A stretch of 64,000 bases of DNA, from positions 487,382 through 551,381 of the forward strand of contig JAOCZO010000004.1 of NCBI GenBank assembly GCA_026413255.1, given 5' to 3'. Of the stretch, positions 52,073 to 64,000 are shown one piece after another (positions within the stretch are counted from its first letter, which is position 1; every line of letters starts with the position of its first letter). The notes under the pieces are model-generated. The model worked only from the letters and a program-made list of their open reading frames with translations. It was not told the DNA's origin and made no database searches. The DNA is from Fereydounia khargensis. Taxonomy: Eukaryota; Basidiomycota; Ustilaginomycetes; Urocystidales; Fereydouniaceae. A program made the position numbers and the translations under genes.

Positions 52073-53917
52073 TCAAGAGGTTCGTGTCGAGAGCCGATCA
52101 GTTGAGGACTTATCCTCCGTATAGATCTCCTCTACTTCATACGTTCGTTCGATTACTACCATGGGCATTTCCCTGGGAGTCGGTTCCGACAAAGGCTCGG
52201 GCCATTGCGACCGCACAATATGTCCTGGAGGCAGGGTGGATAGGGCTGACGTGCTCAACTCGGGATGAGGCTTGGGCTTGGGCTTTGGTGAGGGGATTAC
52301 TGTCGTGTGATCAAAGGTGCGGAAGAGCAAAGAGAGAGAGACAGTTCCCAATCCAACACATGTCGCATAGTCAGCCGTGAGCATGCCTCTCTTGAAGACC
52401 AATCCAGCATTGTTGCGCTCAGATTCAGAGTAGAAAGCAACGGCACCCCACACGGCAAGGCTGAAGAAGAACACAATGGTGCCGATAAGCCCGCCTGATT
52501 GAATGAAAGCTTGGTCAGGAGGTCCATCCCAATTCAGCTACTTGACGGGTCGTGACTCACAGAACTGTACGAAAGTGCTCTTGAAGAGCTTGAGCACGTG
52601 CTCTTCCTGGCGTCTTTGCGCGTTGAGTCCGGGCTTTACACGATCAAATGTCGATGGCTTGACTGCGGGGAAGAAGAGATGGCTGGGTGTTTCTTGATCA
52701 CGCATCTCTTGCTCCGTGAAGAACATGGAAGTTGCGTGAAGTTGATCCGAAGCACCCGCTTGTGATTCCATGTCTGATGACGAGGAAGATGAGCCGAGTA
52801 CTTGGGAACAGCGAGAGATAATGTTATGAATGGAGATTTTGACCTTTACCCTTCGCGAAGTTCCCTGGCCCGAGCCGTTCGAGCGAGAATTTGCCACATA
52901 TGTTCGAAGCTGCTTGAAGAGCATCCAGGTGAGAGGTAAATACGCAGCCAGGTTGAGGACAAGGATGACAAGGACCCATGCGGCATAGATGGTGAAGCAA
53001 ACGCTGAGGTGATACATGGCCTCAAGGTTAGCGTACCAGACCTCTTGTGTGTCAAGAAGCATTTGGCGGGATATCTCGGTGGCATTGTTCCAGTTTCTCT
53101 GGTGATCACGCCACAGGTAGTAGTCTCGCAAAAACTTGTTTTGCGTCAGGGCGGAAGGTACCGCAATGCTCGCGGCAACTGCGAGGGGGATGAGAACCAG
53201 CAGGAACCAGTTGACGAGGGTGGGTGTGACGCCAAGGCGCAGAGCAAGGCTTGGAGGTTTGCCTCGCTGCGGAGAGAGAGAGGAAAAGGCCTCTGGGCGA
53301 GCACAAACAAGGCCGATAGTGCTGAGGATGAATCCAATGCTCAGCGGGTACCAGATCCAACACAAGGCGAGATAAATGTGGTGGATAGTGTCGTTTCGGT
53401 ATTGAACGAGCCAGATCAAATAGCAGTTCCTGTATGAAAGCAAGTGAGAAAAAGAAGGGAGAGAGTCAGTGTCTGACAGTCGTGTCATCGGCCTATTGTG
53501 TAAAGACGCACCAGATGAAAAGGCAACAGGCAAATAGAAGTTCGCAGAGAGAGAAAATGACCAAAGAGTTGGGCACGATAAAGGTGCGGTAGGACGGACG
53601 AGTCTGTGAAAGATCCAGAAGGAGCGCTGTCTGATCTTCCTGATCATGATACTAATGACAAGGAGCATGAGGCACGCGATAAGTGCGAGGATCACTTTGA
53701 ATTGGATGTAGACCCAACGCTCCGTATGGGGCCAGAGGACGTCTCTGGTAAAGATGATGACATCCTTGACTGGATCAGGAGATGCTGTAAAATCAGGCAG
53801 CCAGGCACGATACTGTGGGCCCTTGTGATAAGAAAACATGCAAGCGGCCGGGGGATCAGGAAGGTCAAAGAGACGGTGGAGGTTCTCCCAGGGCGGGTAC
53901 TCTTCCTGTTGGGACAT
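52073..53917 (-). CDS. Seven-helix membrane protein, unknown function (5' junction unclear)
   Basis: The ATG is at 53917. Two clear introns are present: 53511-53430 (TG|GTGCGT to CAG|G) and 52560-52495 (GTGAGT to CAG). The last exon ends at 52073. Seven hydrophobic segments are seen, for example FKVILALIACLMLLVISIMI, TFIVPNSLVIFSLCELLF, IYLALCWIWYPLSIGF, VNWFLLVLIPLAVAAS, and after the last intron GLIGTIVFFFSLAVW. This gives a GPCR-like topology with a long loop between helices five and six. No Git3, Ste3 or opsin signature was found. The first helix and the second lie in different frames. They connect only if a 56-base segment starting at GTGATC is an intron that would delete most of helix one, if an atypical donor is used, or if there is a one-base frameshift. 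The first exon end is therefore unresolved. Confidence 0.65.
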
Positions 53918-54700
53918 GGCGGCGGGGATGGTTGAGACTGAAGGGACGACATTCTGTGTCTAGGTCACGGGCGAGGACATTTATAGGATAACCTATCACA
54001 GGATGAGTACTGCATGTGATTGAGCATCCTCGAGACACGGGAAGAAGTCTCGCTCACAGTGGCGAGTCGATGTCACGGGCTGATCGTCATCGACGCCGTC
54101 CGTTTCCCCGCGGCAACACAGCCGTGTGGCAGACAGTGCATGGTGGGGTGCAGGACGGATGGCATTGTATGGACTCGGTGACACGAGCTAATCGCTCAAT
54201 GTGCATCTCGCCAAGGAGTGCCTAGTCTTCGGGACGACAGGTACACAGGATTCTGAGTTCGGATGGAGATGGTGACAATGGAGAGAAAGGGAGGATAAGA
54301 CATTATTTATTGTGAGCGCCAACCAGGATGAATGGAGAAACGTAGGCAAATAGAGGACTGTGTGGAGGGGAGCGAGAGAGCTACTGTACAATACGCCTGG
54401 TGGCTCAGTTGCCTGCTCCCTAACGGTCAGCCGGCCCTCCAGCAAAGCCATCAAACCAGCTAACTTGCTGGACGAATGCGCTAACGCGGTTTGAGACTCA
54501 GAGCCGACTCGGCCGCCCACCCTTTTTAAGTCCTTTACTCTATGCACGCGCGTCTTTGATCACATCTTAATTACAATGAGTTGAATACAAAAGAAAGAAA
54601 GCGATACTGTAATAAAGGCCGCGTGCATGAATAGAGCGTGGGAGGCAAGTGTCTGGTGGTGACAAGCTCCTGCCACTAGCACTCAGCTTGGTTCCGTGTT
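53918..54700. promoter_or_regulatory. Intergenic region upstream of the seven-helix gene
   Basis: About 0.8 kb between the seven-helix gene start and the end of the deacetylase gene. It holds TACTGTAC (54382-54389) and TACTGTA (54605-54611). No gene is supported. Confidence 0.35.
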
Positions 54701-56585
54701 CTACTTGCCTGGAGGCTTCCACATCCAAGGCACCTGTCCAGGCTTGATTGGAGCAGAGATGGGAGGAAAGTAATCGTCGTTCTCCCCCTCTCCGAACCCC
54801 TTTGTCTCTTCAACAAACTGACCAACGGGAAGTGTTGAGATCGAGCTGGCGCATTCCGACGCCGCAGGGTACGTTGACGGTCCCCTTCGCGAGCAGCAAC
54901 AGAACAGCAGAGTGAAAAAGGCGAATAGAACAGAGGTCCCTCCGACAACCGTGGCAATGATGATAATCTTGTTCCTACGTTTTATATGCGCCTCTTGTTC
55001 CGCCTTCAGAGTGGCAGGATCGTACGTCTGGTTCCCCGACGCTGCAAAAGCCTGCGTTGGGAACACGGTGCTTGTAAACTCTGGCTGGAGGCCTGTAACT
55101 ATCGCTCGAGTCTGCGTGAACGAAGGTAACTCGGAGATTCTGGGATTGATGGCGCTATCCGTGTAGTTGGTCACCTTGATGTATCCGCCTACTGGCAATC
55201 CAATCGGCAGTAGGTTTCCATTCTTGTACGAGATAAAGTCCGGGTAGACAATATTGTCCTCCAGATAGGGTCTGGTAATGTTCTGACAAGCCGAGATGGG
55301 CATGACATGATCAAAAGCTTCTTGCACTGACCTGAGTTCCTCAATCGCGATGTCCATGGACGCTTTGGAGAACTCGTGCGAAAGCACAATTGTACCCTCT
55401 TGGTCAAACTTGCCAGTTTTGGCGTCATTGTTGATGCTCTGATAGGTGGCTTTCACCTCCTCGGGTGGAAGATCGCCAGTGGGTTGACTTCGCCAATCGG
55501 CTGTGTCGTTTTTCCACATCATTGTCTCAAGCCCGAGCCGATAGGCCACATAGCGCACTCGGTCATCAATGTCCCCGTACGGCGGTCGCCAACAGGTCGG
55601 AGTGACCCCCATGACGTCTTGCGCAATCCGGACCGAGTAGTAGAGTTCGGCAAAGAGCTGCTCGTCCGTGAGCTGAACCATATGCGGATGCGACCAGCTA
55701 GACCAATGAGTAGAAGTAAGGTCAGCTACCGTTGATGCCACGAGCGAGCATCAGATCACGTCCATACTCCTTTTTCGCGCTACTCACGTGTGCAAACAAA
55801 TATGATGTCCATCTACAATGGCACGTTGCGCCTGAAGGGGCCATACCATGATGTTCGACCCAATAAAGAACATCGTTGCCTTCTGGTTAACTTCGTTGAG
55901 ATAGTCGTACAGGGCGTTATGGGTGCAATTCGGTCCATCGTCGTAGGTCAGACCGAAAGTCCTAGCCTCGGGGCAAGCATAAGTGTCGGGAGGAATGATG
56001 GGATTCTTTGAGAGAATGCAATGCTTGACACTCCACCAACAGTCTGGATCAGCTTCATCATCGTAAGGTACGAGCACTTGCTCGCCTCCAATGTCGAGTT
56101 TCTGTGGAATTTGAGGAATATCGTCCTTGAATTGGTTGAAGATGGCCCACGCTTCACGATCGGTGGGAACAATTTGGGCAATTGTTCGAACTTTGGGGTA
56201 CTACATGATGACTTCTGCGTAAACAAAGCGCACTATGAGGGATATCATTCAAAGGAAAGTTCGATGTACAACTTACGAGTGGAATCAGCTTTTCCAGGAC
56301 TGGATGTCTGTACTTTTCACAAGCCTTTTCGGGTTCCATGACCTTGGCCATGGCAATCTCATCCGTCTTTAAGGGCCGGGCCTTCCACTTGCGCCGCTCC
56401 AGGCTGATAGGTTCATACAAGGAAAGGGGTAGGCGATTTTGCTGCGCCAGACGTTTGGCAAGTAGAGCATGACGCCTTTCCGGCTTCAGAGGAACGTAGC
56501 CGGGAACACCTCTGCCCACGTGAGCCTGAACAAGCGTCAAGCAGGAGAGTACGAAAATAATACTGCTGAATAGGTTAAGTCTCAT
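54701..56585 (-). CDS. Membrane-anchored CE4 polysaccharide (chitin-type) deacetylase
   Basis: Three exons (56585-56277, 56200-55788, 55697-54701) encode 572 residues. A signal peptide is present (MRLNLFSSIIFVLSCLTLVQ, cleaved near AHVGR). The CE4 catalytic domain follows: TYDDGPN (Asp190 as base, Asp191 as metal ligand), metal-binding HTWSHPH (His240 and His244, completed across the last intron) and RPPYGD. Near the C terminus (about 482-505) a transmembrane helix (IIIIATVVGGTSVLFAFFTLLF, first 20 residues comparable) precedes a cysteine-rich start of a 65-residue tail. Most fungal chitin deacetylases end in a GPI signal, so a real transmembrane anchor with a cytoplasmic tail is less usual. 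It should remove acetyl groups from GlcNAc polymers at the cell surface. It is a neighbour of a nucleotide-sugar dehydrogenase and a chitin-synthase-like enzyme. Confidence 0.9.
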
Positions 56586-57434
56586 GGATGATTGTAGAGA
56601 AATGGCTAGGCCAGAGTCGTCGCACGCCTGGCGGCCCTATTTAAGAGAACTTTCAGGCAGATTAGACGCAAGAGGTTGACCAACCTTGGCTCGGTCTCTA
56701 CTAGACTGTGGGCAAACAGTGTGGGGAAGGACGGTACAACTTGTCGTCTCGTTACGGGTGTGCACCCAGTTGACATGCTGAGACCGGGGACACGGCTCCG
56801 CTGTGAGAAAGATACAGTGCTGTAACGTGCGGTATTGGTTGACGACGGTGACAGGCCCAGGAGTTCCAAACTATCGGGCAGCTCCTGTCGGAGTTCGTCT
56901 TATGCACAGCTGCCGCTCACACGGGAACCGGCGGGACGGGGTGACGCAGGAGCGCGTCTTGACAGGTCGAAAAGATCTGAGCATGTCGTGATTTGCAGAG
57001 GCACGGGCGGGCTAGGGCTGTTTAACGCTTTTGGGGGCCTGATTCACCTCGTCCCGTTCGCTGGAGCAAAGACCTCGGGAGCCTGAGACAGTCTTTAACA
57101 AAGACCCCGGTCCCGTTGATGCACAAACCCTTAGGAGACCCTGGATAATCCTGTGGCAAAGGCGGACTTGGCGAGCGGGTACTCCCGTTTGAGACACACT
57201 CATCCTGTCAATTACCAATGCATTCAACTTGAGTCAAGAGTCATTTACGCGTGATTTGCGTTGTCGCACTGAACAAATGAACGCCACATGCTCAGACGTA
57301 CCGTACTCTCTACACTCGAAGCAATTGTGTTAGCTGGCTTGCCAGACTCGCACAATGCAATACCACAACAAACAATACAAGACAAACAGCGTTCAAGACA
57401 AAACAAAGAGGAGTAAAACATAACAAGTGCCTCT
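56586..57434. other. Intergenic region, deacetylase to dehydrogenase
   Basis: This is the promoter side of the deacetylase gene and the 3' side of the dehydrogenase. No gene or repeat was seen. It is moderately AT-rich near the dehydrogenase stop. Confidence 0.35.
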
Positions 57435-59078
57435 TCAGGCACAGAAACGAATCCACTGGGTCACACTGATGTATCCCAACACCTCTCTCTGCGCGTCACT
57501 CGTCTTGTGCACGCTTACCACCACATCAAAGGCGTCATCTACCCGCCTTGCACAATCTCTGCTGATGAAGGGCGACCTGTGCCCGCATGATGGGAATAGA
57601 TCCGAGCTCGCTACCCGTTCCCATCGGTCTGTTTCAACGTGGTCATCCATGTAGCTCACTCCGACTCCGCCAGACTCGAGTTCTTCAGCCAGCGTGACGG
57701 CAGGCGAGTGCGACAAGGATGATTCACCTTCCTTGAAGCCCAGTCCCAGGATCAACACCTTGGCTTTCGACCTGTAATGACGAGCGACGTCCCTTCGACT
57801 CGCCAGAACGGTTTCAGCGATCTTGCTAATTTCGGCTGCTTTGGCCCGCGGTCTTCTGCGATTTTGCAAAGTAGCCTGCTCAAGTAGCGGCAGGCTGCAC
57901 GTAGACAGCAGGTACCAAGGGTTCACGGGGATGCAATGCCCGCCGGCACCTAAGGACGGGCTAAACTTCATGAACCCAAATGGCTTGGTTCCACTGGCTT
58001 CGACTACCTCGTGCACGTCGATTCCAAGTGCCTCGCAGGCATCCGAGATCTCGTTGATGTAGGCGATGTTAATCATGCGGAAACAGTTCTCGTATAGCTT
58101 GCACATCTCAGCAGTCTCGGGCTTTGAGACTGGGACAATGGTCGTGAACACGTTTCCGTAGAGCTCAACCACTCGTGCAAGCGAGACCGAGTCTAGACCG
58201 CTTACGACCTTGGGAATGTCCTTTGGCAAGGGAAATTTGCGGCCTGGGTCGATACGCTCGGGTGAGAAACCAATCAAGATACCCTGCGAGCGAAGCGGTC
58301 CCAGCAGATGACGAGTAGTGCCGACGCCCACAGAGGACTCGATGACCATTGTCGAGCCAGGTCGTAACAGATGCTTGGTGTTTGCAACCGCTGCCTCAAT
58401 GTGGCGAGTGTCAATGCCCTTGCCGTCCTCGAGAAGGAGCGTGGGTACCGAAATCAGGACCAGATCGTAATGTTCCTGCTTGTCCTCTTCGGATGTTGGT
58501 CTGTGGCTTGTGCTTGAGATCACTTGGACGTTCTGATTTTTGGCGAACATTCCCCGCAATTGACGCTGTCGAGCAGGGCTGGCATCATAAGCATGAGTCC
58601 TGTACACCGCCGAGAAACGCTCCACCAGATGGGTGCCAACGTAACCCACCCCACAGACCAACACCCTTTCGGGACGCTGAGGAGGGCATGTTCCAACGTC
58701 CACGTCTTCCTTTAGCTCTGACTTGAGATCTTCCTCCAGGCCTATTTTGGGAGACGGCGCCAGACTGTCTTTCAGGACGACCAAAGACGGGTTACGTGTC
58801 ATGGGTTGGAACTCAAACGGGTCCCAGTCGCAATCCTGCATCGGAGGCTCATCCAGCTCGAAATCTTTTTCGCATCGGTTCTTTAGGTCCTCTTCGTGAT
58901 CGAAGCCTCTGGAAGTTTCCGGGGGAGTTAAGGGAGTGGGACTGTCGAGGAAAGACGAGCTTGATGATAAGGGTGTCGTCGTGTCTGAGGCCTCATCATC
59001 CGACGTCGGCATTGACTTGGAAGGAGCCAAGTCAAACGCAGGAAGCGAATGTCTACGTCTTTCGGAAAGGCACTCCAT
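57435..59078 (-). CDS. UDP-N-acetylhexosamine 6-dehydrogenase-like enzyme
   Basis: A single exon predicts 547 residues from the ATG at 59078. The frame continues upstream only through a non-ATG start. A disordered Ser/Asp/Glu-rich N terminus of about 135 residues precedes a nucleotide-sugar dehydrogenase. It has NAD-binding VCGVGYVGTH (Gly143, Gly145, Gly148), IESSVGVGTTR, FSPERIDPG and the catalytic cysteine C382 in GAGGHCIPVNPWYL. The HCIP signature is that of the WbpA/WecC/VipA group, which oxidises UDP-GlcNAc, UDP-ManNAc or UDP-GalNAc to the uronate. Ordinary fungal UDP-glucose dehydrogenases have a different active-site motif (GGSCFQKD). The C-terminal sugar-binding domain is present (LGLGFKEGESSLSHSPA). 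This enzyme type is uncommon in fungi. Horizontal acquisition is possible but unproven. It sits about 5 kb from the telomere. Confidence 0.88.
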   Translation of the reverse strand: MECLSERRRHSLPAFDLAPSKSMPTSDDEASDTTTPLSSSSSFLDSPTPLTPPETSRGFDHEEDLKNRCEKDFELDEPPMQDCDWDPFEFQPMTRNPSLVVLKDSLAPSPKIGLEEDLKSELKEDVDVGTCPPQRPERVLVCGVGYVGTHLVERFSAVYRTHAYDASPARQRQLRGMFAKNQNVQVISSTSHRPTSEEDKQEHYDLVLISVPTLLLEDGKGIDTRHIEAAVANTKHLLRPGSTMVIESSVGVGTTRHLLGPLRSQGILIGFSPERIDPGRKFPLPKDIPKVVSGLDSVSLARVVELYGNVFTTIVPVSKPETAEMCKLYENCFRMINIAYINEISDACEALGIDVHEVVEASGTKPFGFMKFSPSLGAGGHCIPVNPWYLLSTCSLPLLEQATLQNRRRPRAKAAEISKIAETVLASRRDVARHYRSKAKVLILGLGFKEGESSLSHSPAVTLAEELESGGVGVSYMDDHVETDRWERVASSDLFPSCGHRSPFISRDCARRVDDAFDVVVSVHKTSDAQREVLGYISVTQWIRFCA

Positions 59079-60693
59079 GCTTGAACGTGATTTCGTATCG
59101 TCTCGAGTTGACAAGAAGAGTTTAGGTTTCTTCAGATGTGGAAAGCTGTACAGGAAAACATTTTAAGCCTATTTATCGGACCAGAAAGGGCACTCCACTG
59201 GCTGTTCGAGCCAAAAGACGTCAGCTTTTGCGCAGACACAGCTCACCGAGCCAAGTGGGAACGTTCCTTTGCCTCTCAAGAGCTCTTCAGGAGACCATGA
59301 TATCTCCCGACCCTGGACCGTTCCCGCTGCGCAGCGGCGAGAGTTTGAAACATGCTCGAAGAGAAATGGACCGCAGGAACCGGAGGCCGCGTCAAGGGGG
59401 GCCGCGGTATGATCTGAGCCACGGAAGGCAGTACAAGAGAAGATTACAGTCAAGAGCCGCTGTAGCAGGTGGGGTGTCTCTAGACCGAAGGCCTTAAACC
59501 AACAGTCTCTCATGGATATCTTGCTTAACAAGCATGATTCGTAATCCTGGATGGGACTCACGAACGTCCGGGTCACGAGCTGTAGATTCTGACTCACTTT
59601 TGGTGCAGCGGAAAGGCGTGGGTATCTTACATGTTGTCTGGACCATCTGGTGCTGGTGGTTTCAGTCAGGATTTGCCGGACCAGAGAGCCACAACCGGCG
59701 GGAGGGCTTCCAGCCTGACAGTCAAAGAGCGTATCTAGCTCAGACGGGTTGCACGAGGAACAAAGATACAGTTTTCGTTTGGTAGTCTCTGAGTCACTCT
59801 ACCTCAAAGTATGATGGCAAAAGCCCGTGAACGATTTCAGCTTTGCAGGGTTGATTCTGCTATTCGCACGTTCTGGAGCCCCGGCTAGGTGTCCCCGGGG
59901 CCCGAAGGATCGGAGACTGCTTTGGATTCGGTGGCCTGGCTCAGAGCAACGGAAATGGATTGGGGTTTACAGCATCTCCTTTGCGGTGCTGACACGCTTC
60001 ATTGACTCCTGTTTGGTTGACCTATGCTTCACGCCATTTCAAACGACCCTCTTGGGGCGGCTAGCGGTTTCTATCACACATTACAGTACTGTACAGTACT
60101 TGACTGGACCCCATCACAGAACGTGAGCAGGGTTGAGGAAGGCGGTGTTTTCTGGGTGTTTAACGCGGTAGTTGACAGGAGCGTCATGGGAGGTTGAGCA
60201 TCGACGCGGAGCTTGAATGGAAAATCCTCTGCACATCCCCGCGTTCTCGTGCTGTGTCTCGCCCAACTCCCATCTACTGAACAAGCACCTCTGTCTCAAT
60301 TTGTTTCCCACGCAAATGGATTCAGTCAATCCCGTCTCGTCTTATCCATGATCCACGAGGCTTGCTCACAACAACTCAAAGAAAATGAGGGTTGATCCCG
60401 TTTGCCCTCTTCTTGTGAGTTCCGTTCCATCGCATCTAGGTTAATTGTCCACCTCGACAAGGGCTTGCGTGACCAAAGTCAGGCCCCACACCTCTGAAGC
60501 ACGCTCGCCCTCCCGCTCTGATTTCTCATCCAAATGTGAATGTGCTTCGATTGTTCCGAGTCTCACTTTCTCCACACGTTGATTGGAGAATTTTCCATTT
60601 ACTCGCTTCTAGCAACCTGGGCCAAGTATAAGACTGCAAAGCCAATCATCGTGTTTGGACTCTCCTCCACTACCTCGATCTCTCCCCGGAATC
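59079..60693. promoter_or_regulatory. Divergent region between dehydrogenase and GT2 synthase
   Basis: This is a 1.6 kb stretch between outward-facing start codons. A palindromic-looking word TACAGTACTGTACAGTACT lies at 60082-60100. An ATG at 60385 with a GTGAGT donor at 60415 and an acceptor CTAG at 60612 could be a first coding exon of the synthase. A 114-codon minus-strand frame (to 59169) is unsupported. Confidence 0.45.
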
Positions 60694-62883
60694 ATGCTCA
60701 ATGGCACGCAAAGACGATCTCTAACAAAATGGAGCATCATCGCTTTCATGCTCATTGCCAACTTAGGCTTGACTATTGCAACTTGGCTGGTGACACCTTT
60801 ATGGTTCATCTTTGTCCCCATTGTTGGGGCTGCCAACTTTGTCAACTCGGTCATGGTGGTTGTCCTACTGGGCTGGTACGTTCAACAAACTCTTAAAACA
60901 ATACTCTTCCCTCGTAGTCGACAAGCACTTGATCTGGAGAAGGGCAAAAAGTTCTCAAGCAAGACGCTAGCATTTGTGGTTCCATGCTACAGCGAAAGCA
61001 AAGAGGAGATCACAAGTACCCTGGACTCGCTCGTGAAACAGTCAGGGCTCGACGTTCACAAGCGGCTGTTGGTCGTAATTTGTGACGGTCGCGTCAAGGC
61101 TGCCGATGCAGCAAAGGAGACCAACCAGATCCTTTTTGAGGACATCTTTGATTACGACAGCAAAGAGGTTGTCGTCAACACGCACGATAACTTTGACCGT
61201 GGATACCAATCCTGGACGCGGCACTACGTTGGCATCGAGACAAGAACCGGAACGTACCGTGGAGTGCCTTTCATGGTCGTGGTAAAGTCAAGTAACCACG
61301 GAAAGAGGGACTCACTCATTTTTTTGCGAGTTCTGTTGCACAAGTTTAACCTCCGAACACATGCCCGTCAAACTCCATTCAGCGAAGCTTTCCTCACCTT
61401 CTTCCATACTACGTGCGGAACGTTTGGCATACATCATTTTGACTTTGTTGTCGGTGCCGATGCGGACACGACCTTTCATCCAAAATGCACATCCGAGATG
61501 ATGAAGAAAGCCATGGAACGAGATAATATCGTTGGAGTGACAGGTATTGTACGTTGCCGGTTCAAGCCAGGACAGGCTGGATTTTGGAGCCTGTTCCAGC
61601 ACGCAGAATACCTCAAGAGTCAGGCCCTTCGCCGACTACATCAAAGCGAGATTACACATCAAGTCACTTGTCTTCCGGGTGCTTGTCAGCTGTTCAAGGT
61701 GCGCGAATCAACATGTGGCGACACACTCATGAGGTATCTCTTCGGCTATTACCCTCAAGATCGCGATGGCCTCATCACTGCAGTTCGGGCTTTTGGTGGC
61801 GAAGATCGAAATCACATGGCCCTGATCTTCACATTAACACCTTATGAGACAAGCAGGATGGTGTGGACAGCGCACGCTTTCACTGACCCTCCTCAAAACT
61901 TCAAGGTTTTCCTTTCGCAGCGAAGACGATGGTCTCTCTCATCCATGACCAATAACATCATCACCGTCTTTGGGCGCGGCCAAAATCTCTGGGAAAGGAT
62001 TTGCTCCTTTGTCGATTTGATGAACTGGACTTTGCACTTCTTTATTCTCGGAACGTTGGCACATTTTATCAGTGCAGTCATCTCGCACACTGGATGGATA
62101 ATGCTGGTCGCACTCAGCAGCCTCGTGGTCATTCCCTGGCTTTACACAATCGTCAGCATTTCATGGATGCCAATCAATGGAACGGAACGGGCGAGGTATG
62201 CCCTTGGAATTACCATGCTCATCTTTGTATCCGCAGCAATGGATTGCTTCGTGATCGTCTATACAGCACTGCATATGACCGACTATTCGTGGGGTAAGAC
62301 TCGCGAGGTAGCAAAAGAATATGAAGGCGCTACTCACGTTCCCGCCGGGGCAGAAGAGACACTTATTCTTCCAAACGATGCCGAGCCGGCTGCAGCTCAG
62401 GTCAATCTGGCACCGTCTCATGACTTGGAACCCTCAGCGGCTCGAGTCGCTGTGCCGGTTCCACCACGGCGCGAATCGGAAGATCGCGTGGAAATCGAGG
62501 AGCTCTCGAGCGATCAATCGACGTCCTCACATGACTCGCACAACTCGGAGTGGGCGAGAGTCTCGGAACTGTTCCGGGATAGCCGCTTTGCACGGCATTC
62601 AACACGATATGAGCAAAGGTACCCCTCAGAATCCGAGTCGGGTCACTCAACCAATATCCCTGATACTCCCGCGTCCAGCGTTCATCCAGTGGACATGTCA
62701 GAAGCTGCGGCTTCACTGGAGCGATACTTTACCTACGACAAGTTACTGAAGCAGCTCTCAAACTACACGGAAGGATCAAGCGAAAAAGTGGTTGCTGCTT
62801 CGGTCGCCCCACCTTCCAAGGTCACTGTCAGCGATCCAACCAACGTCGGTCCGCCAGGGACGTCGTATATTGGCACATTTTGA
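60694..62883 (+). CDS. Chitin-synthase-superfamily glycosyltransferase (GT2)
   Basis: The gene body is one exon, 729 residues from the ATG at 60694. Two N-terminal helices are followed by the family 2 catalytic core: VVPCYSE with the first Asp region, GADADTTFHP (Asp256 and Asp258, the DxD), the EDR motif (370-372) and QRRRW (409-413). Three or four C-terminal helices then form the translocation channel. A disordered Ser/Glu-rich tail runs from about residue 565. EDR plus QRRRW are chitin-synthase hallmarks, but the protein is shorter and divergent from the usual classes, closer to small processive polysaccharide synthases. It probably makes a GlcNAc-type or related beta-linked chain and exports it. 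An upstream exon (60385-60414, joining 60613 in phase) would add about 37 residues. Confidence 0.9.
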   Translation: MLNGTQRRSLTKWSIIAFMLIANLGLTIATWLVTPLWFIFVPIVGAANFVNSVMVVVLLGWYVQQTLKTILFPRSRQALDLEKGKKFSSKTLAFVVPCYSESKEEITSTLDSLVKQSGLDVHKRLLVVICDGRVKAADAAKETNQILFEDIFDYDSKEVVVNTHDNFDRGYQSWTRHYVGIETRTGTYRGVPFMVVVKSSNHGKRDSLIFLRVLLHKFNLRTHARQTPFSEAFLTFFHTTCGTFGIHHFDFVVGADADTTFHPKCTSEMMKKAMERDNIVGVTGIVRCRFKPGQAGFWSLFQHAEYLKSQALRRLHQSEITHQVTCLPGACQLFKVRESTCGDTLMRYLFGYYPQDRDGLITAVRAFGGEDRNHMALIFTLTPYETSRMVWTAHAFTDPPQNFKVFLSQRRRWSLSSMTNNIITVFGRGQNLWERICSFVDLMNWTLHFFILGTLAHFISAVISHTGWIMLVALSSLVVIPWLYTIVSISWMPINGTERARYALGITMLIFVSAAMDCFVIVYTALHMTDYSWGKTREVAKEYEGATHVPAGAEETLILPNDAEPAAAQVNLAPSHDLEPSAARVAVPVPPRRESEDRVEIEELSSDQSTSSHDSHNSEWARVSELFRDSRFARHSTRYEQRYPSESESGHSTNIPDTPASSVHPVDMSEAAASLERYFTYDKLLKQLSNYTEGSSEKVVAASVAPPSKVTVSDPTNVGPPGTSYIGTF

Positions 62884-63927
62884 TGTCTGCTTACAACAAG
62901 TAAGCAACGCAAGGGACAATAGCTTAAGGGAATCCGTGGGAAAGTCGAATGCAGAGCTTAGGAATAAAAGGAATTGGGGTAGCGTTGACTACCACTTCAA
63001 TCTTGCTTTTCTCATCCACAACGAGCATGAATTGCACAGCACATGCGCTTCACGCTACGACTTAGACTGATTGAATTTGGAGCAGTAGTCACGGTCCATG
63101 CTCATTTGCAGACTAGAAAGAAAGTACGAAAGGGCAAAGTAAGTGGGTCTTCTTGCGCTGAGACGAGAGTGCCGACGCATGAGCTACCGAGCCGCCTTAT
63201 CAATTCTACTTGATTTCAGGTATTCATGCAACGGCACAGAGGACAAGTGCCGATAGAGCTATTCTCATCGGCCTATTGGGATGCCAATTGTGGTCTGCAG
63301 TCTGGTGAGCCTGTTGGCTGCTCCGAGTCTGAGGAAGTTCCGAAGGGCAGTGGCTGGAGGTTATAGCTCCGGAGCGGACTGAGCTCGGTTGCTACTCAGA
63401 CTTGATCATCTGCGCGATTCTCGGATTGGATTGAAATCGGGTGCTTCATAGACTCGGACACACTCATTAGTACCGGATCAGCTTGAATCCGGTCGTCAGG
63501 CGACGATTTAGGCTCGGCTGCCGGAGGCTTCAGTCACGGAGCATGGCTTTGGCACATGCCTTGTCTTGCCACTGTCTCTTATTGTAGCTCCCAATGCTTC
63601 CGTACGTCTTTGGGCCCAGATGAATCCTTATCGCACAGATTCACCGCTACAGACATGCTTTTACGAGACACACGAGCATTTTCTAGTTTTGGACGTAAGA
63701 GGGGACTGCCTGAGTACATTTCCTCCTGTCTTTTGTCAACCAAGTCTCTTCAGTGCCGCCCTCAGCCCGTCAAATTGCTGTTTCAAGCCCCACTGTCCTC
63801 AAAATACATTTAGTAATCAACGGTCCAAGACTTTAAGGTGAGCTAAACTGCCAGGCTACTGTTACAGGGCTGGATGTTAGACCAACGACCAGGGTTGGAT
63901 GTTGCAGTACCGTCCACGGCCGGAGGG
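62884..63927. other. Subtelomeric region without genes
   Basis: About 1 kb after the synthase. No convincing gene was seen. The sequence CCAGGGTTGGATGTT appears near 63880 as a partial echo of GGCTGGATGTTAG at 63869, a short imperfect duplication just before the telomere. No long tandem subtelomeric repeat is visible. Confidence 0.5.
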
Positions 63928-64000
63928 TTAGGGTTAGGGTTAGGGTTAGGGTTAGGGTTAGGGTTAGGGTTAGGGTTAGGGTTAGGGTTAGGGTTAGGGT
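63928..64000 (+). repeat. Telomere repeat array (TTAGGG)n
   Basis: Perfect TTAGGG repeats from 63928 to the window end, about twelve units, directly following CGGAGGG. The G-rich strand runs 5' to 3' toward the end, which is the correct polarity for a right chromosome end. The array is cut by the window or contig boundary. Confidence 0.98.

What the first reader, a model, noticed from the sequence alone, without database searches (positions are those of the whole stretch)
54701..62883. Subtelomeric three-gene locus for a modified amino-sugar polymer
Within 8 kb, ending about 1 kb from the telomere, lie a CE4 deacetylase with a transmembrane anchor, a nucleotide-sugar 6-dehydrogenase of the HCIP (UDP-HexNAc) type, and a divergent chitin-synthase-superfamily synthase with DxD, EDR and QRRRW motifs. 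Together they could supply a uronic donor, polymerise an amino-sugar chain and remove acetyl groups, giving a charged cell-surface polysaccharide. The seven-helix membrane protein next door may be unrelated or may sense the polymer. This resembles in logic, not in sequence, the hyaluronan pair (synthase plus UDP-Glc dehydrogenase) and the Aspergillus galactosaminogalactan cluster. The motifs are seen in sequence; the pathway is inference.
Basis: partly seen in the sequence, partly recalled or inferred. Interest (0 to 1): 0.8.

Follow-up and report, generated by a model that had tools for sequence, protein, structure and literature searches.

The report
Subtelomeric virus-like chitin synthase cluster
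Next to a chromosome end, a smut-related fungus carries a known fungal and algal-virus gene partnership (an unusual chitin synthase plus a sugar-oxidising enzyme) together with a chitin deacetylase, and the sugar-oxidising enzyme lacks an acidic residue thought to be needed for its chemistry.

Summary
In detail: three intact genes (CE4 deacetylase, HCIP-type nucleotide-sugar dehydrogenase, divergent chitin synthase) lie at 54701-62883, the synthase ending about 1.04 kb from a real TTAGGG telomere. The kind is known: a virus-like chitin synthase beside a "UDP-GlcNAc 6-dehydrogenase" (UNGD), in some clades with a deacetylase, is described in fungi and phycodnaviruses, the pair also in Ustilago hordei (PMC4059230, PMC5122149, PMC7053769). 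The dehydrogenase falls with Ustilaginomycotina. The synthase joins a clade (97/90) apart from the chlorovirus group, and joining it to that group is rejected; published accounts tie the deacetylase to the chlorovirus-like class, so this looks like a variant. The genome has a separate canonical UDP-glucose dehydrogenase. New point: all 120 listed dehydrogenases (window included) have Asn where the 80 best bacterial relatives have the catalytic Asp; that change is reported as detrimental in human UGDH (PMC3184952). The "uronic donor" step is therefore unproven. Product, co-expression and synteny were not testable. Verdict: new variant of a known cluster; mechanism inferred.

The parts
54701..56585 (-). 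CE4 polysaccharide (chitin) deacetylase, 572 aa, 3 exons (56585-56277, 56200-55788, 55697-54701), C-terminal transmembrane anchor followed by 69 residues
   Evidence: PF01522 in two of three exon frames; motifs TYDDGP, HTWSHPH, RPPYGD, LSHE and splice sites; PDB CE4 deacetylases
57435..59078 (-). HexNAc-type nucleotide-sugar 6-dehydrogenase (fungal UNGD clade), 547 aa, single exon, Asn386 at the usual catalytic Asp position
   Evidence: PF03721/PF00984, TIGR03026 above cut-off, Ustilaginomycotina clade, Asn motif, model pLDDT 90
59079..60693 (.). 1,615-bp intergenic region between the head-to-head dehydrogenase and synthase genes; possible shared promoter (inference)
   Evidence: geometry; no established shared motif with the deacetylase upstream region
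60694..62883 (+). divergent virus-like chitin synthase (GT2, PF03142), 729 aa, single exon, 5 TM segments by hydropathy
63859..63910 (+). 52-bp subtelomeric element shared with contig C6 (92%, telomere repeats follow at once) and C32 (88%)
63928..64000 (+). TTAGGG telomere run, end of contig C4

Best explanation
The locus is a subtelomeric copy, in a member of Ustilaginomycotina or a close relative, of the known fungal/phycodnaviral module 'virus-like chitin synthase + UNGD-type dehydrogenase', with a membrane-tethered chitin deacetylase beside it. Shown: three intact genes, their families, motifs, predicted folds (synthase, dehydrogenase) and phylogenetic placement. Inferred mechanism: the cytosolic dehydrogenase oxidises C6 of a UDP-N-acetylhexosamine; the plasma-membrane synthase polymerises GlcNAc, possibly together with the oxidised sugar, and extrudes the chain; the deacetylase, facing outside, removes acetyl groups, giving a charged chitin/chitosan-like surface glycan distinct from bulk wall chitin.
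For: Module identity: synthase-UNGD adjacency is reported across fungi and algal viruses, and a deacetylase in the chlorovirus-type clusters. Kappel 2020 reports co-induction of chs8 and cda1 in Trichoderma during mycoparasitism (passages). Dehydrogenase placed with Ustilaginomycotina: 25-row clade, SH-aLRT 100, quick tree, long branch. Synthase inside the virus-like group (34 rows, 100/100 against 3 division-2 rows) with Zalaria and Coniochaeta (97/90). Best viral fold matches are M1HWF1 (unnamed in the output; recalled as a chlorovirus-type accession) and EsV-1 ESV-1-84, TMq 0.80 and 0.79, next 0.58. Catalytic motifs of the synthase and deacetylase are complete. The genome has 3 other strong chitin_synth_2 genes and its own canonical UGD, so the window enzymes are additional. 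No TM segment by hydropathy in the dehydrogenase, which fits a cytosolic donor pool.
Against: The dehydrogenase has Asn at the catalytic Asp position. For relatives the papers point to plain chitin: FgCHS8 disruption lowered chitin and CHS activity, and chlorovirus chs genes go with chitin fibres. Goncalves 2016 says there is no evidence yet that fungal ESV-class proteins work. The published co-location with a deacetylase is for the CV class, and the tree rejects joining this synthase to the chlorovirus group. The genome has only 3 CE4 matches, so this deacetylase may serve general chitosan formation. No expression or synteny data. Sequence ties the synthase to chitin synthases, structure equally to hyaluronan synthases. 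The class labels rest on published statements, with one tension: Exophiala xenobiotica P0228 falls on the chlorovirus side in my tree, while Chen 2014 puts Wangiella (Exophiala) dermatitidis in the other clade; paralogues could explain it.
Confidence: 0.5

Rival explanations
1. Synthase and dehydrogenase form the functional pair inherited from Ustilaginomycotina ancestors; the deacetylase is an ordinary cell-surface chitin deacetylase that happens to lie next door, and the synthase may make plain chitin.
For: Only the pair is reported for U. hordei, and Ustilaginomycetes are said to carry only the ESV class, for which the sections read report no deacetylase (PMC4059230 section 15, PMC5122149 section 8). 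Only three CE4 matches in the genome, against 7 or 8 CDA genes reported for U. maydis (passages). Chitin reported for CV-class relatives.
Against: The deacetylase gene starts 849 bp from the dehydrogenase stop, on the same strand; the same trio composition recurs in CV-type clusters.
Confidence: 0.33
2. The dehydrogenase clade has changed chemistry: lacking the water-activating Asp, it does not release a hexosaminuronic acid by the usual two-step oxidation, but stops at an aldehyde, works very slowly, or uses another base.
For: Asn in 120 of 120 listed family members including the window's (the list is the best 120 of 7,197 matches) against Asp in 80 of 80 kept bacterial relatives (the best 80 of 559) and in the 5 solved enzymes whose alignments were printed. 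D280N is described as detrimental in human UGDH (passage).
Against: The catalytic Cys is present in all 120; the Lys and Asn of the KLxEN segment are conserved across the family and bacterial rows. A conserved Asn shows that the protein is under selection, not that it is impaired.
Confidence: 0.13
3. Hyaluronan-like logic: the dehydrogenase makes UDP-glucuronic acid and the synthase is a heteropolymer synthase of GlcA and GlcNAc.
Against: The dehydrogenase has the HexNAc-type HCIP motif and nearest HexNAc enzymes, and the genome already has a canonical UGD. A profile of the synthase family reaches chitin and cellulose synthases in the PDB but no hyaluronan synthase at E up to 1.
Confidence: 0.04

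Closest known systems
CHS-like + UNGD two-gene cluster of fungi and algal viruses (Chen et al. 2014, PMC4059230; section 15 read, other passages)
   Same: Divergent PF03142 synthase next to a UNGD-type dehydrogenase; reported also in U. hordei (UHOR_08674/08675)
   Different: A membrane-anchored deacetylase is third here; location beside a telomere
ESV and CV virus-like chitin synthase classes (Goncalves et al. 2016, PMC5122149; section 8 read, other passages)
   Same: D, D, EDR, QxxRW motifs; UNGD neighbour; patchy distribution; fast evolution
   Different: Tree rejects joining it to the chlorovirus group or to that group's fungal sister clade; ESV membership not directly tested; the deacetylase neighbour is reported for CV
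Trichoderma atroviride chs8-cda1-UNGD cluster (Kappel et al. 2020, PMC7053769; passages)
   Same: Same three enzyme types together
   Different: There chs8 is head to tail with cda1 and has QRKRW; here the synthase is head to head with the dehydrogenase and has QRRRW; orthology of the deacetylases untested
Chlorovirus CVK2 chs - udp-gdh2 region (review PMC5408694; passages)
   Same: Chitin synthase and a second nucleotide-sugar dehydrogenase in one block
   Different: Algal virus; the chlorella virus NE-JV-1 synthase is 24-26% identical to the window's
Hyaluronan synthase + UDP-glucose dehydrogenase; Aspergillus galactosaminogalactan cluster
   Same: Logic of donor plus synthase (plus deacetylase)
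   Different: HexNAc-type dehydrogenase and chitin-synthase-family enzyme; no further polysaccharide gene among the 10 upstream ORFs scanned, 3 of which had no Pfam match

Membership tests
Virus-like (ESV/CV) chitin synthases | PF03142 domain with D, DxD, EDR, QxxRW | tested here: met
Virus-like (ESV/CV) chitin synthases | Falls outside superclasses IV/V, within the virus-like group | tested here: met
   34-row clade 100/100 against three division-2 rows; model closest to M1HWF1 and EsV-1 ESV-1-84 among viral models
Virus-like (ESV/CV) chitin synthases | UNGD gene beside it | tested here: met
   window 57435-59078, 1,615 bp away, head to head
CV class | Groups with chlorovirus synthases and their fungal sisters | tested here: not met
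   AU p 0.0048 (with clade A) and 0.0068 (with the chlorovirus group); clade A plus chlorovirus itself only 90/79; window branch long, 1.59
ESV class | Groups with EsV-1 and U. hordei sequences | tested here: inconclusive
   Neither sequence was available for the tree; only a fold match to ESV-1-84, TMq 0.79
CV-type three-gene cluster | Polysaccharide deacetylase orthologous to the CV-cluster one | not tested
   A deacetylase is present; no homologue search was left to test orthology (3 of 3 used)
UNGD, EC 1.1.1.136 (UDP-GlcNAc 6-dehydrogenase) | Three domains, HexNAc-type GGHCIP, catalytic Cys/Lys/Asn | tested here: met
   the C-terminal Pfam match is below its cut-off (25.0 of 30) but the model is ordered there
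UNGD, EC 1.1.1.136 (UDP-GlcNAc 6-dehydrogenase) | Catalytic Asp four residues after the Cys (position known from UGDH) | tested here: not met
   Asn in the window and in all 120 listed family members including it; Asp in 80 of 80 kept bacterial relatives and 5 printed solved enzymes
UNGD, EC 1.1.1.136 (UDP-GlcNAc 6-dehydrogenase) | Oxidises UDP-GlcNAc to the acid | not testable with these tools
   NCBIfam equivalog cut-offs not reached: ManNAc 121.7 of 459, TviB GlcNAc 82.7 of 592
CE4 chitin deacetylase | NodB motifs TYDDGP, HTWSHPH, RPPYG, DW, LSHE | tested here: met
UDP-glucose dehydrogenase | GGSCFxKD active-site motif | tested here: not met
   window has GGHCIPVN; the genome's other gene on C9 has GGSCFQKD
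Hyaluronan synthase | Closer to HAS than to chitin synthase | tested here: inconclusive
   Profile reaches chitin synthases, no HAS at E up to 1; structures tie

The most novel reading that the evidence does not exclude
A clade of fungal (and other, partly unnamed) nucleotide-sugar 6-dehydrogenases, partnered with virus-like chitin synthases, has replaced the catalytic aspartate by asparagine throughout and runs a modified oxidation, feeding an amino-sugar polymer not yet described in fungi. In this smut relative the non-chlorovirus version of the pair has separately gained a membrane-tethered deacetylase, reproducing the chlorovirus-type trio by convergence.
Probability: 0.18. Interest if true: 0.72.

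Novelty: new variant of a known kind. Interest (0 to 1): 0.5.

Why it matters
[quoted passage not shown] A compact locus with all three enzyme types in a 10.5-Mb genome is a convenient place to solve it. The fixed Asp-to-Asn change makes a sharp prediction: either a working dehydrogenase that needs no such aspartate, or a chemistry different from the one implied by the 6-dehydrogenase names that many sources give this family.

Tried and rejected
Rejected: chance ORFs (long intact frames, family matches, splice sites); subtelomeric relics (no internal stop in the three coding sequences); recent foreign origin by composition (GC3 0.55-0.62 for the three genes, within the 0.52-0.80 of 13 other window ORFs, which are unspliced frames); UDP-glucose dehydrogenase identity. 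A shared promoter motif between the synthase/dehydrogenase region and the deacetylase upstream region was not established: 9 shared 10-mers against a shuffle mean of 2.8 and maximum of 10 in 200 mononucleotide shuffles.

Led nowhere: scans of viral contigs for the synthase (2, 41 and 122 stretches matched, none confirmed) and of genome contigs (24 matched, none confirmed); their peptide patterns are narrow, so this is weak evidence of absence. tblastn of the chlorella virus synthase P0144 against phages: no match. A search for the locus tag FGSG_03170 (recalled as FgChs8) found no paper. The alignment search for the synthase (842 matches, 120 listed) filled with ascomycete sequences and listed no protein named as Ustilaginomycotina, so the Ustilago ESV synthases could not be put into the tree. 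The single-sequence search scored a capped set of candidates and gave 28 hits, so its absences are weak too. Motif counts around dehydrogenase loci: none of 80 bacterial loci had a CE4-motif frame; 1 of 27 viral loci (L124) had both a CE4-motif and a QxxRW frame; not pursued. An early thought that the window synthase is of the CV class was dropped. In one search the bacterial rows were picked by a pattern that already required Asp and 2 of 80 loci were dropped, so the Asp count is taken from one search, which did not require it; the list of positions shared by both sets is used only for the Lys and Asn. In one search the motif counter scored P0121 by a second match in its tail; by the printed row it is GED.
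Full report
What is there. The window is C4:487382-551381 of a 10.46-Mb, 40-contig fungal assembly with no relatives held. Its last base is the contig end and carries a TTAGGG run (63928-64000). Three intact genes lie in the last 9.3 kb: a CE4 deacetylase (54701-56585, minus, three exons), a nucleotide-sugar dehydrogenase (57435-59078, minus, one exon) and a chitin-synthase-family enzyme (60694-62883, plus, one exon). The dehydrogenase and synthase are head to head over 1,615 bp, and the deacetylase start codon is 849 bp from the dehydrogenase stop. A 52-bp element at 63859-63910 recurs at the end of C6, directly before telomere repeats, and on C32. Of 10 ORFs scanned from the rest of the window, 7 had Pfam matches (such as DAHP synthase, peroxin 13, XPG nuclease) and none of these was a polysaccharide gene; 3 had no match, and other ORFs of that part were not scanned.

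The dehydrogenase. In a quick tree of 121 rows it belongs with 24 other proteins whose named members are all Ustilaginomycotina (classification recalled), SH-aLRT 100, and it branches first in that clade on a long branch. This suggests vertical inheritance and tells what the fungus is (inference). It is of HexNAc type: GGHCIP motif, best solved match a UDP-ManNAc dehydrogenase by sequence and fold, and NCBIfam equivalog scores highest for ManNAc and GlcNAc enzymes although below their cut-offs. The genome has a separate canonical UDP-glucose dehydrogenase with GGSCFQKD.

So do all 120 proteins listed, the window's own included (the list is the best 120 of 7,197 matches). The 80 bacterial relatives kept (the best of 559) all have Asp, although one of the two scan patterns asked for Asn. 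Of 27 viral-contig relatives 23 have Asp and 4 showed no readable motif. The five solved enzymes printed have Asp. PMC3184952 (passages) states that Asp280 activates the catalytic water and that Asp280 to Asn is detrimental to catalysis. The catalytic Cys is kept in all 120. The name 'UDP-GlcNAc 6-dehydrogenase' for this clade is therefore a prediction; none of the papers seen gives a biochemical test of a fungal member. I found no mention of the substitution in the listings of searches or in the passages read.

The deacetylase has all CE4 motifs and a transmembrane anchor followed by 69 residues, so it is not a typical GPI protein (inference). The genome has only two other CE4 matches, on C12 and C34; the C12 protein is 35% identical over 136 residues.

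What is known. Chen 2014 (PMC4059230; section 15 and passages) described the synthase-UNGD pair in ascomycetes, Ustilago hordei and algal viruses, and a deacetylase as third gene in nearly all species of the clade with green-algal viruses. Goncalves 2016 (PMC5122149; section 8 and passages) named the ESV and CV classes, said that Ustilaginomycetes have only ESV, tied the deacetylase to CV, and noted no evidence yet that fungal ESV proteins work. Kappel 2020 (PMC7053769; passages) reported chs8-cda1-UNGD in Trichoderma, with chs8 and cda1 strongly induced during mycoparasitism. [quoted passage not shown] Against a special polymer stand the reports that FgCHS8 loss lowers chitin and that chlorovirus chs genes go with chitin fibres. 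So the cluster type is known; a deacetylase beside a synthase outside the chlorovirus side is the unusual part here. One tension with this labelling: an Exophiala xenobiotica synthase (P0228) falls on the chlorovirus side in my tree, while Chen 2014 places the W. (Exophiala) dermatitidis one in the other clade.

A further sign of coupling, seen in passing: two proteins named as Exophiala xenobiotica and Elasticomyces elasticus (P0228, P0232) carry the synthase followed by a C-terminal region. In P0228 it is 29% identical over 188 residues to an Exophiala dermatitidis UNGD; neither sequence shows a GGHCIP motif there (read by eye). Pfam gives only 15.6 bits for a dehydrogenase domain in P0228, below its cut-off, and none in P0232.

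Judgement. Most likely the pair makes a modified amino-sugar surface polymer and the deacetylase acts on it or on neighbouring chitin. The family assignments are shown; the polymer, the substrate and any co-regulation are inferred. The finding is a new variant of a known kind, with one testable anomaly in the dehydrogenase.

Noticed in passing
P0228 and P0232 (Exophiala xenobiotica, Elasticomyces elasticus): Virus-like chitin synthase with a C-terminal region; in P0228 it is related to the UNGD N-terminal half (29% over 188 residues) without the catalytic motif; possibly a fused pseudoenzyme.
   Followed up: partly
window 63859-63910; G000 C6:534970-535021; C32:110051-110099: Short subtelomeric element shared by three contigs, on C6 directly followed by telomere repeats.
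   Followed up: partly
window 52073-53959 (-): Hydrophobic, likely multi-helix protein in two same-frame segments separated by one stop codon (an intron may remove it); no Pfam match.
   Followed up: no
P0140, P0142: Synthase relatives of unnamed origin, rich in Asn, Ile and Lys, that group with the chlorovirus synthases (98/94); could be viral or fungal.
   Followed up: partly
L124 (IMG/VR contig stretch): An Asp-type dehydrogenase, a CE4-motif ORF and a QxxRW ORF within about 5.5 kb (motifs only).
   Followed up: no
window 59078 back to about 58690, dehydrogenase N-terminus: About 130 residues rich in Ser/Thr/Pro and acidic residues before the NAD domain; Ustilaginomycotina relatives such as P0002-P0010 also have N-terminal extensions.
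   Followed up: no
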